Positions 1-33,494 of a stretch of DNA of 33,494 bases are shown in pieces. Within the stretch, counting starts at the first letter, position 1. The number at the start of each line of letters is the position of its first letter. The stretch spans positions 1 to 33,494 of the forward strand of contig CAJXUL010000009.1 of assembly GCA_913060615.1 (NCBI GenBank). Direction: 5' to 3'. The notes under the pieces were generated by a model, which worked only from the letters and a program-made list of their open reading frames with translations, was not told the DNA's origin and made no database searches. This DNA is from an uncultured Gammaproteobacteria bacterium. Its GTDB lineage: Bacteria; Pseudomonadota; Gammaproteobacteria; Pseudomonadales; Azotimanducaceae. The position numbers and the translations under genes were made by a program.

Positions 1-49
1 ACGAGATAGGAGTCCGTCTCGTGGGCTCGGAGATGTGTATAAGAGACAG
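1..49. other. Nextera P7-side adapter, i7 index and transposon end (artefact)
   Basis: Synthetic sequence. Positions 1-7 are the tail of the P7 oligo, 8-15 (AGGAGTCC) match the i7 oligo I remember as N705, 16-30 are the Nextera read-2 adapter and 31-49 (AGATGTGTATAAGAGACAG) the Tn5 mosaic end. Genomic sequence begins at about position 50. Confidence 0.98.
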
Positions 50-66
50 GGTGTAAAGGGCGCTTC

Positions 67-27987: not shown

Positions 27988-28839
27988 ATGGAAGTTAACG
28001 CGCCAATCCACGTTACCGTCGAATCGTTTCAAGCGGACGTTATCGACAAATCGCAATCTATTCCCGTAGTCGTACTATTTTGGGCCGAGCAAATTCCGCT
28101 GTCTGTGCAAGGCAAAGCGCTGCTCGAACAATTGCTCACTGAGTATCAGGGTAAATTCATATTGGCCTTATCCGACGTGTCTATTGATCAAAGTTTGGCT
28201 CAGCGCCTGCAGGTACAAGGTTTACCGAGTATTCGTGTAATTCATCTAGGCCAAATGGCTGAACAAATCGATGGCCCGGCAGATGAAGCTCAGCTCCGCA
28301 CCATTTTGGATGGGCTTACTGAATCAGCGGCGGACGCTCTTAAGGGTGACCTAGATTCAATGCTGGCATCCGGAGACTTCGCCAGTGCAATTGCAGTATT
28401 GCAGGAGAGCATTCAAGAAGAGCCCAAAAATCAATCACTGCGGGTAGAGCTGGCAGACGCTCTTGTGCGCAAGGGTGACGTAGACGATGCGCGCACAGTG
28501 CTAGCGTCTATTCCTGAAGGCACGAAGGATCTTGAGCGACCTCAGAACAGACTTGAGTTTGCTGAGGAGGTAGCGGCCATGGATTCTTTAGATACGCTCC
28601 AGCAAGCAATTAGCGGTGCACCTGATGATCTTGAAATTAGGTACCAGTTGTCAATTGTGCAGATTGTCGCTGAGCATTATGAAGATGGACTGGACAGTTG
28701 CATGGAAATTTTGCGTGCTGACCGTGAGTTCCGCGAAGATATTGGTCGGCTGACAATGATTAGGGTGTTTAACATGCTGGGTAAGGGCAACGAGATCGCC
28801 GGCAAGTATCGCCGTAAGATGTTTAACCTAATGCACTGA
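27988..28839 (+). CDS. CnoX/YbbN-like thioredoxin-fold TPR chaperone
   Basis: 283 residues. An N-terminal thioredoxin domain (about 1-110) is followed by a helical tetratricopeptide-like region. The C-terminus (REFREDIGRLTMIRVFNMLG, then KYRRKMFNLMH) matches the YbbN/CnoX family. The thioredoxin active-site position reads W32-A-E-Q-I-P-L-S39, with no cysteine, and the whole protein has a single Cys outside this motif. It cannot act as a thiol oxidoreductase through a CxxC pair, so a holdase role that hands clients to GroEL or DnaK is the likely function. Transcribed alone after a 150-bp gap. Confidence 0.9.
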   Translation: MEVNAPIHVTVESFQADVIDKSQSIPVVVLFWAEQIPLSVQGKALLEQLLTEYQGKFILALSDVSIDQSLAQRLQVQGLPSIRVIHLGQMAEQIDGPADEAQLRTILDGLTESAADALKGDLDSMLASGDFASAIAVLQESIQEEPKNQSLRVELADALVRKGDVDDARTVLASIPEGTKDLERPQNRLEFAEEVAAMDSLDTLQQAISGAPDDLEIRYQLSIVQIVAEHYEDGLDSCMEILRADREFREDIGRLTMIRVFNMLGKGNEIAGKYRRKMFNLMH

Positions 28840-29105
28840 TGGGTAGTTTGTGTTGTTAGTTTTTTGGCGGATTTCGGTGGTTTTTTGCGCTTCAATTAGG
28901 CATATGGGCGATTGATAAATTTAGCGAATATAATTGACCGAGATGTAGTTAAAAAACACTAAATCTGCTGTATCGCCGCAGCTTAAAAATATTGTCACCA
29001 TTTTTCCAACGTGTAAATTTCGTGGCAACTCTAGGCGAATTAAGGGAAATTTATTGCCGGTAGGGCTTTGCGGGTTAGTAACCACTTACATGCAAACGGA
29101 TTGCT

Positions 29106-29114
29106 TTATGCACA
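29106..29114 (+). promoter_or_regulatory. DnaA box (TTATGCACA)
   Basis: Exact match to the TTATNCACA consensus. It lies about 70 bp upstream of the IHF site. Confidence 0.6.
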
Positions 29115-29184
29115 TTAGAAAACAAAACTATGATAAGTCGCAACATGGCGGCGAACGTTCAATCTAAATAGCATGATATGTGCT

Positions 29185-29197
29185 TAAGTAATTGATT
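29185..29197 (-). promoter_or_regulatory. IHF consensus site
   Basis: TAAGTAATTGATT; on the minus strand AATCAATTACTTA fits WATCAANNNNTTR with no mismatch. A weak DnaA-like 9-mer (minus strand TTAAGCACA, 29179-29187) overlaps it. AT-rich sequence runs from here to about 29255. Confidence 0.5.
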
Positions 29198-29281
29198 TTA
29201 ATAATATTTATTAGATATTTGTAATCGGTCTTATTTTTAACTTTGATAATTGGCGGTCGATATACAGTGTAATGCCACAAG

Positions 29282-29316
29282 TTATCCTCAAACTTATCCA
29301 CAGGTTGCGTGGATAA
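29282..29316. promoter_or_regulatory. Cluster of three DnaA boxes
   Basis: TTATCCTCA (29282-29290, plus, one mismatch), TTATCCACA (29294-29302, plus, perfect) and TTATCCACG (29308-29316, minus strand, one mismatch). Spacers are 3 and 5 bp. Three such 9-mers in 35 bp are very unlikely by chance. Confidence 0.75.
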
Positions 29317-29370
29317 AAAAGCCACCCCATAGCAAGGGTTTAGCATCATGTGGGTCGCCTAGTAACATCT

Positions 29371-29455
29371 CTGGACTTTTGCAAGAAATTTCGTTCATTC
29401 GTTCAGAAGGTCCCTCTGGCCAATAAAAAACCCAAAACTGGATTTTGCAAGAAAA
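29371..29455 (+). repeat. Pair of direct repeats upstream of the ligase gene
   Basis: CTGGACTTTTGCAAGAAA (29371-29388) and CTGGATTTTGCAAGAAA (29439-29455) differ by one deleted C and are 68 bp apart start to start. They lie 105-189 bp before the ligase start and could be paired regulator-binding sites. Confidence 0.6.
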
Positions 29456-29559
29456 ACAACTGAGAAATACGCATTTGCCGTAAGTTTTAGGCATTATCAA
29501 TGAGTGGCGTTGAGTAGCGCGCTAATGGTCTAAATAATCGGATAGGAGGATGTAGGCTG

Positions 29560-30960
29560 ATGTCAGATACAAGTTCAGAAACGGGCAATATTGACGCCGA
29601 GACCTTGCAGCAAAAACTCAGTCACTATGCTGACCGAGGGGTTAGTCAGGTCAAGTTGGGCCTTACCGACATTGATGGCGTGATTCGTGGCAAATATGTG
29701 GGTATCGACAAGTTTATTAGCCTGCTGAAAAAACAGGGTGGCTTTTGTGACTGTATCTTTGGCTGGGATGTGGATGACCAACTCTACGACGCGGGAACCT
29801 ATACGGGATGGCACACCGGATTTCCCGACACAAGTTTTCGCCTATTAGTGGAAACTGAGCGTTGGTTGCCTGATGAAAATTGCCCCTATTTTATTGGCGA
29901 GTTTGTAGGTGTTAATGGCACCGACCACCCTTTGTGTCCTCGTACGCGGCTAAAAAATGTGCTGGCTGAATATGCAGCCATGGGACTCAGCGTTCGCTCC
30001 GGCTTTGAATACGAATTTTTTGTCTTTGCTGAAACGTCGCATAGCGTGCGCGACAAAGGTTATCGCGGACTCACACCACTGACCCCCGGTAATTTTGGCT
30101 ACTCAGTATTGCGCTCCTCGGTAGAGTCCCAGCGCTTTAATGCACTGCTAGATTACTGCCGGGCTATTGAGTGCGATATTGAAGGACTGCACTGCGAGAC
30201 CGGCCCCGGTGTTTGGGAGGCGGCGCTTAAGTCTAAAGTAGGTATTCAGGCAGCGGACCGCGCAGCTTTGTTTAAAACATTTACCAAAGTGTTTTTTCAA
30301 CGCCAAGAGCTCATAGCCACGTTTATGGCCAAGTGGTCTATGGACTATCCCGGCCAGAGCGGACATTTCCATTTCAGCGTTGCTGATGATCAAGGCGCCA
30401 ACCCATTCTTTGACCCTAATGGTGAGCGGGGCATGTCATTATTGCAGCGCCAAGCTGTTGCCGGTCTACAGCGGTATTTACCCGAATTCCTCTCACTGCT
30501 GGCTCCCACTATTAATAGTTACACACGCCTAGTTAAAGGTGCTTGGGCGCCTACTGCGGCAACCTGGGGTATTGAAAATCGTACAACGGCCATTAGGGTA
30601 ATTCCTGGTGATAGCGGTAGTCAGCGCATTGAATGCCGGGTGGGTGGTGCAGATGGCAACCCCTACCTTGCTGCAGCTGCCATGCTCAGCGCCGCTTTAG
30701 AAGGTATTAGGCAAAACCTCGATCCCGGGCAACCGACCCAAGGGAATGCCTATGATGTAGAAGATAACTTGCCGGTTGCTGCCAAGTTCTCCACCAACCT
30801 TGGGGACGCAGCGAATGCCTTGGATACATCAAGTGTTGCAAGAAGTTATCTGGGCGATGAATTTGTAGATCACTTTGTGATGAGCCGCCATTGGGAAGTG
30901 CGTGAATATCAGCGCAGTCTGAACAGTTGGCAGCTAGAACGTTATTTCGAGATTATTTGA
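29560..30960 (+). CDS. Glutamine-synthetase-family ligase (gamma-glutamylamine synthetase type)
   Basis: 466 residues with the GS fold. Metal and nucleotide motifs: GFEYEFFVF (two Glu ligands), EGLHCETGPGVWEAAL (Glu pair), GQSGHFHFSV, GIENRTTAIRV and RIECRVGGADGNPYLAAAAML. In place of the ammonium-site DGSS loop of housekeeping GlnA it reads FGWDVDDQLYD, as in PuuA/GlnA3-type enzymes, so it probably glutamylates an amine rather than making glutamine. No adenylylation-type Tyr motif was recognised. It overlaps the next gene by TGATG. The substrate (polyamine, alkylamine or other) is unknown. AGGAGG lies upstream (from about 29546), a strong ribosome-binding site. Confidence 0.9.
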   Translation: MSDTSSETGNIDAETLQQKLSHYADRGVSQVKLGLTDIDGVIRGKYVGIDKFISLLKKQGGFCDCIFGWDVDDQLYDAGTYTGWHTGFPDTSFRLLVETERWLPDENCPYFIGEFVGVNGTDHPLCPRTRLKNVLAEYAAMGLSVRSGFEYEFFVFAETSHSVRDKGYRGLTPLTPGNFGYSVLRSSVESQRFNALLDYCRAIECDIEGLHCETGPGVWEAALKSKVGIQAADRAALFKTFTKVFFQRQELIATFMAKWSMDYPGQSGHFHFSVADDQGANPFFDPNGERGMSLLQRQAVAGLQRYLPEFLSLLAPTINSYTRLVKGAWAPTAATWGIENRTTAIRVIPGDSGSQRIECRVGGADGNPYLAAAAMLSAALEGIRQNLDPGQPTQGNAYDVEDNLPVAAKFSTNLGDAANALDTSSVARSYLGDEFVDHFVMSRHWEVREYQRSLNSWQLERYFEII

Positions 30961-33278: not shown

Positions 33279-33448
33279 TTATACCTTTTCGTCAGCAGGC
33301 TCTTCGTCAACACGAAATGAGTCAACTTGCGGGTTGGGGTTGTCAAACATAAGCCAAGCAATTAGATAAATTGCGATGGTGAGTTTGGCAAAGAACAAGC
33401 CACTGATAATTGCACATACTCGCACCAGTTGCGGTGCCAGATTATGGG
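33279..33448 (-). CDS. PspC-domain protein, 3' end only (cut by contig end)
   Basis: The last 55 codons and stop of a minus-strand gene; the 5' part is beyond the contig end. The translation contains PQLVRVCAIISGLFFAKLT followed by IAIYLIAWLMFDNPNP, the second half of a PspC domain: the LVRV entry, one transmembrane helix and the YLIAWLM exit before a Pro. An acidic tail, VDSFRVDEEPADEKV, follows. PspC proteins sense or regulate envelope stress at the inner membrane with PspA/PspB. This may be PspC itself or a small PspC-domain protein. Beyond 33448 the frame would run into adapter. Confidence 0.75.
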
Positions 33449-33494
33449 CTGTCTCTTATACACATCTGACGCTGCCGACGAATAGAGAGGTGTA
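33449..33494. other. Nextera P5-side adapter and i5 index (artefact)
   Basis: CTGTCTCTTATACACATCT (33449-33467) is the inverted Tn5 mosaic end, then GACGCTGCCGACGA (to 33481), the index complement ATAGAGAG (33482-33489; S502 as I remember it) and GTGTA of the P5 oligo. Confidence 0.98.

What the first reader, a model, noticed from the sequence alone, without database searches (positions are those of the whole stretch)
28840..29559. DnaA-box cluster plus IHF site and AT-rich tract in a 720-bp gene-free region
Seen directly: a perfect TTATCCACA and two one-mismatch boxes within 35 bp (29282-29316, the third inverted), another exact TTATNCACA match at 29106, a perfect IHF consensus at 29185-29197 and an AT-rich stretch between IHF and the cluster. 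Known: oriC carries DnaA boxes, IHF and an unwinding element; datA and DARS sites that tune DnaA activity also use clustered DnaA boxes, some with IHF. Inference: this is a replication-origin-like or DnaA-regulatory locus. Against a standard oriC: flanking genes are a CnoX-like gene and a GS-like gene rather than dnaA, gidA or rpmH, and no GATC was found. A datA/DARS-like element, or DnaA control of the downstream ligase operon, is therefore at least as likely.
Basis: partly seen in the sequence, partly recalled or inferred. Interest (0 to 1): 0.78.

Follow-up and report, generated by a model that had tools for sequence, protein, structure and literature searches.

The report
DnaA-IHF replication control element, not origin
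A short non-coding stretch in a marine bacterium carries a precisely spaced set of sites for the replication initiator DnaA and the DNA-bending protein IHF; it is not the replication origin, but looks like a cousin of the E. coli loci that switch DnaA on or off.

Summary
They form one conserved element (29074-29316): dyad GTTAGTAACCACTTAC, box A (+), 79 bp to a perfect IHF site, 97 bp to weak box B1 (+), 12 bp to perfect box B2 (+), 14 bp to inverted box B3. Boxes A, B1 and B2 recur at near-fixed spacing in 57 of 80 related loci, the IHF site in 49 of those 57, also where flanking genes differ.

It is not oriC: in the window's own genome GC skew switches at dnaA on another contig, and relatives show no switch at the element. 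A simple promoter role is unlikely: in L014 it lies between convergent ORFs.

Against E. coli loci measured here, B1-B2-B3 (12/14 bp, last inverted) equals the DARS1/DARS2 core; box-IHF-box in one direction with 97 bp after IHF is datA-like. It is neither exactly: A-IHF is 79 not 65 bp, B3 is missing in most relatives, and no Fis gene passed the cut-off in 37 genus genomes. Most likely an IHF-looped DnaA-regulating locus of the datA/DARS class, a new variant. Its biochemical output is untested.

The parts
29074..29089 (.). 16-bp dyad GTTAGTAACCACTTAC (consensus GTTAGYNNNNRCTAAC), site for an unknown factor
   Evidence: within 3 mismatches 28-43 bp upstream of box A in 40 of 54 elements; same search downstream: 0 of 54
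29106..29114 (+). DnaA box A, TTATGCACA, exact TTATNCACA
   Evidence: within 1 mismatch at 180-198 bp before B2 in 57 of 80 loci
29143..29148 (.). short conserved block (ACATGG), function unknown
   Evidence: A, ATG invariant in the 21 loci with 188-bp spacing
29185..29197 (-). IHF site, AATCAATTACTTA on minus strand
   Evidence: 0 mismatches; within 1 mismatch at this place in 49 of 57 loci, elsewhere 0-7 of 57 per 13-bp offset window
29198..29217 (.). AT-rich flank of the IHF site
   Evidence: AT-rich consensus after TTGAT in related loci; role inferred
29282..29290 (+). weak DnaA box B1, TTATCCTCA (position of DARS box III)
29294..29302 (+). perfect DnaA box B2, TTATCCACA (position of DARS box II)
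29308..29316 (-). inverted DnaA box B3, TTATCCACG (position of DARS box I)
   Evidence: 1 mismatch; inverted box at +14 with up to 2 mismatches in 25 of 87 core instances, 0-6 at other offsets 9-31
27988..28839 (+). left neighbour: thioredoxin/TPR protein (CnoX-like); context, not part
29560..30960 (+). right neighbour: glutamine synthetase-like ligase; context, not part

Best explanation
A chromosomal DnaA-control element of the datA/DARS class, away from oriC. IHF binds 29185-29197 and bends the DNA so that DnaA on box A meets DnaA on the weak-strong tandem pair B1-B2; all three boxes point the same way, as in datA. The looped complex changes DnaA's nucleotide state or holds DnaA back, tuning when oriC fires. 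I think the output shared by the orthologues is datA-like (inactivation or sequestration of DnaA), because it is boxes A, B1, B2 and the IHF site that are kept everywhere. In this species the inverted box B3 completes a DARS-type head-to-head core, so a reactivating output is a close second. The dyad probably binds a further factor, perhaps doing the job Fis does at DARS2. Shown: sites, spacing, conservation, not at the skew switch. Inferred: protein binding, looping, output.
For: Spacing A-IHF 79 bp in 32 of 49 and IHF-B1 97 bp in 25 of 49, ranges 76-80 and 95-100. E. coli datA measured the same way: box(+)-65-IHF-97-box(+), IHF in the same orientation; published minimal datA needs an IHF site between boxes 2 and 3, a low-affinity box 7, all essential boxes in one direction (PMC5742627, passages). 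E. coli DARS2: IHF-87-box III-12-box II-14-inverted box I; DARS1: 12/14 as well. Pattern with box A, IHF core and B2: 56 of 206 family genomes, 19 of 37 genera, reversed control 0 of 206. Element persists with other neighbours: RmuC and DUF4212/SSF genes (L047, L230), convergent ORFs (L014). Skew excludes oriC. Own genome encodes IHF-beta (153 bits, over cut-off), an IHF-alpha fragment running to a contig end (81 bits) and an Hda-like protein (162 bits, under its cut-off of 195).
Against: A-IHF is 79 bp, not datA's 65. 23 of 80 loci lack the element, partly because GS relatives further off were included or contigs end. 8 of the 57 lack an IHF match within 1 mismatch; the window's four closest relatives have 1 mismatch there. 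No DnaA or IHF binding, hydrolysis or nucleotide exchange was tested. In G058 (L052) box A is missing and the skew is too noisy to place the origin well.
Confidence: 0.72

Rival explanations
1. DARS2-type reactivator: ADP-DnaA on the head-to-head boxes B2 and B3 (II and I) is made to release ADP, helped by IHF; box A regulates.
For: B1-B2-B3 has exactly the 12/14-bp DARS core geometry of E. coli DARS1 and DARS2, and IHF lies on the box III side in the same orientation, 97 bp away against 87, one helical turn more. Inverted box at +14 (up to 2 mismatches) in 25 of 87 core instances, against 0-6 at other offsets; in 10 of 54 loci an inverted box sits at +23 to +25 instead. Head-to-head boxes I and II are called essential to DARS (PMC10380432, passages).
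Against: B3 is absent in the close relatives L003, L004, L005 (5, 3, 5 mismatches) and 37 of 54 loci have it at neither position, while A, B1 and B2 stay. DARS2 needs Fis (PMC4245941, passages), and no Fis gene passed the cut-off in 37 genus genomes.
Confidence: 0.3
2. Passive DnaA titration site: clustered high-affinity boxes only soak up DnaA.
For: Two perfect and two one-mismatch boxes; DnaA titration on the chromosome is documented in E. coli (PMC12371093, passages).
Against: Titration does not need a positioned IHF site, fixed spacing, fixed orientation or a dyad.
Confidence: 0.12
3. Transcription control of the GS-like gene by DnaA and IHF.
For: Element lies upstream of the GS-like gene in most loci that have it, 48-280 bp or so from B2.
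Against: L014: between convergent ORFs, 2.4 kb from GS; L047, L048, L053, L058, L059, L065, L066: 2-3 kb away with genes between; L032, L034, L035, L045: GS without the element. Promoter scan of the region near background: 5 found, 2.4 +/- 1.7 expected.
Confidence: 0.1
4. Chromosomal replication origin.
For: DnaA boxes, IHF site and AT-rich tract together.
Against: Skew switch at dnaA in the own genome (-0.057 left, +0.060 right of G000:C1 about 19.7 kb) and in G018 (between 3.80 and 3.895 Mb; dnaA 3.843 Mb, element 4.504 Mb); uniform skew over 378 kb of G004:C22 and 16 samples along 702 kb of G007:C15.
Confidence: 0.02

Closest known systems
datA of E. coli (DDAH locus)
   Same: IHF site between DnaA boxes that point the same way; IHF-to-next-box 97 bp in both; same IHF orientation; a weak-strong box pair 12 bp apart
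   Different: box-to-IHF 79 not 65 bp; the weak-strong pair lies after IHF, not before it; extra dyad; extra inverted box in this species; different neighbours
DARS2 of E. coli
   Same: three-box core 12/14 bp with the last box inverted, IHF on the box III side in the same orientation
   Different: IHF to box III 97 not 87 bp; distal box A is direct at 79 bp from IHF, while the distal box of DARS2 is inverted at 98 bp; no Fis gene over the cut-off in the genus; inverted box not kept in relatives
DARS1 of E. coli
   Same: same three-box core; third box mismatched only at its last base in both
   Different: DARS1 needs no IHF (PMC4585315, passages); this element has IHF and box A
Pseudomonas aeruginosa second putative origin
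   Same: a further DnaA-box region away from the main origin in the same order; known to me only from reference titles and recall
   Different: not compared here

Membership tests
oriC | at the GC-skew switch | tested here: not met
oriC | autonomous replication / unwinding | not testable with these tools
   needs experiment
datA | IHF site between DnaA boxes of one direction | tested here: met
   A, B1, B2 all (+), IHF between
datA | spacing box-65-IHF-97-box | tested here: not met
   79 and 97
datA | promotes DnaA-ATP hydrolysis | not testable with these tools
   needs biochemistry
DARS | three-box core, boxes I and II head to head (12/14 bp) | tested here: met
   in the window
DARS | core conserved in orthologues | tested here: not met
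   inverted box at +14 in 7 of 54, at +23 to +25 in 10 of 54, neither in 37 of 54
DARS2 | IHF site near the core | tested here: met
   97 bp from B1; E. coli 87
DARS2 | Fis present in host and Fis sites in place | tested here: not met
   Fis over cut-off in 0 of 37 genus genomes, 19 of 21 genomes of other families; no recurring Fis consensus near box A in 54 loci
DARS | ADP release from DnaA | not testable with these tools
   needs biochemistry

The most novel reading that the evidence does not exclude
In a marine lineage that has lost Fis, one element fuses a datA-type loop (box A - IHF - B1/B2) with a DARS-type head-to-head core, and a new dyad-binding factor replaces Fis. Gain, loss or one-turn shift of the inverted box toggles the locus between inactivating and reactivating DnaA from species to species.
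Probability: 0.25. Interest if true: 0.8.

Novelty: new variant of a known kind. Interest (0 to 1): 0.6.

Why it matters
datA and DARS are known mainly from E. coli; reviews say DARS-like sequences occur in many proteobacteria (PMC10380432, passage). This element gives dozens of natural spacing and box variants across a lineage without a detectable Fis, so the rules that decide whether a DnaA-IHF complex inactivates or reactivates DnaA become testable by comparison. The dyad points to an unidentified partner.

Tried and rejected
Origin: rejected by skew. Gene regulation: disfavoured by synteny. Rfam: no match at gathering score in the window. Conserved small ORF over box A: seen by eye as a 25-codon frame in the window, broken by stops in the alignment of the nearest relatives, so dropped. 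Fis sites near box A: no offset had 4 or more consensus hits in 54 loci. Chromosomal position as a guide: G018 660 kb from dnaA, G058 unclear, so not used. The dyad as a genome-wide operator: exact sites are few (G000 2, G018 3, G004 2, G007 1, G016 1, none in G025, G078, G020) and the reversed control gives similar numbers (G018 5, G004 1, G025 1); only in G004 and G018 is one of them at the element, so it is not a large regulon. Strict pattern with boxes A, B1, B2: 12 of 341 order genomes, some of them probably unrelated box clusters (L217, L218, L221). Exact DARS-type core: 5 of 369 class genomes; the window itself does not match that pattern because B3 ends in G.

Literature: searches are listings; passages only were read of PMC4245941, PMC10950094, PMC4585315, PMC8682772, PMC5742627, PMC10380432, PMC12371093 and PMC4285127. 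In these I saw no description of this element; most listed papers were not opened, and subscription papers are not held.

Full report
Observation. The window as a whole has no excess of DnaA boxes (27 against 31 expected); the triple within 26 bp is rare for a 720-bp region (2 of 4000 simulated) but not for 33 kb (5 of 200). So the window alone proves little; relatives decide.

Conservation. I fetched 80 loci, the best of 210 relatives found by the GS-like gene. Box A, B1 and B2 at the same spacing occur in 57 of 80; 49 of these 57 have an IHF match with at most 1 mismatch at the same place, against 0-7 of 57 in other offset windows. A to B2 is 183-192 bp (188 in 21 of 57), A to IHF 76-80 bp (79 in 32 of 49), IHF to B1 95-100 bp (97 in 25 of 49). 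Among 30 genus loci fetched with the CnoX-like gene, 19 show the exact pair within their short flanks; some of the other 11 carry it further away (G007, G018, G030). A pattern of box A, IHF core and B2 hits 56 of 206 family genomes in 19 of 37 genera, reversed control 0 of 206.

A fourth part. About 30 bp upstream of box A lies a dyad, GTTAGYNNNNRCTAAC, within 3 mismatches in 40 of 54 elements; the same search in a downstream region gives 0 of 54. The window copy has 1 mismatch. It is kept (0 mismatches) in L014, where the element is not upstream of GS. The E. coli regions fetched have none at the corresponding place.

Not an origin. In G018 (4.65-Mb contig, 40 samples of 20 kb) skew turns from minus to plus between 3.80 and 3.895 Mb, at dnaA (3.843 Mb); the element is at 4.504 Mb. 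In the window's own genome the contig with dnaA has skew -0.057 left and +0.060 right of it. G004:C22 (19 of 19 stretches positive) and G007:C15 (16 of 16 samples positive) show no switch at the element. G058 is noisy and its element lacks box A, so I do not lean on it.

Not tied to one gene. The usual place is between the CnoX-like and GS-like genes. In L047 and L230 the neighbours are RmuC on one side and a sodium:solute symporter on the other, with DUF4212 identified in L230; L053 and L065 have ORFs of like size there. In L014 the element lies between convergent ORFs. Where CnoX and GS abut (L032, L034, L035) or nearly so (L045) there is no element between them.

Comparison with E. coli, measured with the same scan. 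datA: box(+) 65 IHF 97 box(+) 12 box(-), with a 2-mismatch box 12 bp before the first, which I take to be box 7. DARS2 (found in the rppH-mutH region, flipped): IHF 87 box III 12 box II 14 inverted box I. DARS1: 12 and 14, last inverted. Window: A 79 IHF 97 B1 12 B2 14 inverted B3. The second half is a DARS core, the first half a datA-like box-IHF-box arrangement. An inverted box exactly at +14 is found (up to 2 mismatches) in 25 of 87 core instances, against 0-6 at offsets 9-31; 82 of 87 have a box A, and the 87 include a few probably unrelated box clusters. Ten of 54 loci have the inverted box at +23 to +25 instead, one turn further; 37 of 54 have neither. The window and L002 have it; L003, L004, L005 do not.

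Host factors. IHF-beta is over its cut-off, IHF-alpha is a fragment at a contig end, an Hda-like protein is present under its cut-off. Fis: over cut-off in 0 of 37 genus genomes (best 74 bits, in a 490-residue frame of G032) and in 19 of 21 genomes of other families in the order. DARS2 needs Fis (PMC4245941, passages), so a plain DARS2 mechanism is unlikely here.

Verdict. A datA/DARS-class element and a member of neither by the tests made. I commit to an IHF-looped DnaA complex regulating DnaA, class-level confidence 0.72; for the output I lean to datA-like because the invariant parts are those datA needs, with DARS-like close behind for this species because of B3. Binding, looping and output are inferred.

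Noticed in passing
L235, L236, L251 and hemF loci L300-L312: A second element type next to the 3' end of the hemF gene (coproporphyrinogen oxidase): boxes 162-164 bp apart with IHF 65-66 bp after the first, the E. coli datA spacing. At hemF it is seen in G018, G009, G005, G007, G384 and, G031; 153 bp in G025; no IHF match at 0 mismatches in G005 and G007. Not found there in G000, G016, G078, G257, G532; G020 not testable (contig end). In G018 it lies at 1.085 Mb, by the terminus-type skew switch.
   Followed up: partly
L209 (G257:C33), B2 at 2352, 1910, 1501, 1067: Four copies of the element in tandem, about 410-440 bp apart, beside the CnoX-like gene; two of the four lack a recognisable box A.
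   Followed up: partly
genus genomes G000-G036: No Fis gene over the cut-off in 37 genomes, against 19 of 21 in other families of the order.
   Followed up: partly
window 1-50 and 33448-33494: Both contig ends carry AGATGTGTATAAGAGACAG with flanks that look like Nextera sequencing adapters (recalled); the exact TTATACACA 'boxes' at 34 and 33456 are adapter artefacts.
   Followed up: yes
L293-L297: Exact DARS-type cores in 5 of 369 class genomes, one beside priA (L297), one beside a tRNA synthetase (L293).
   Followed up: partly
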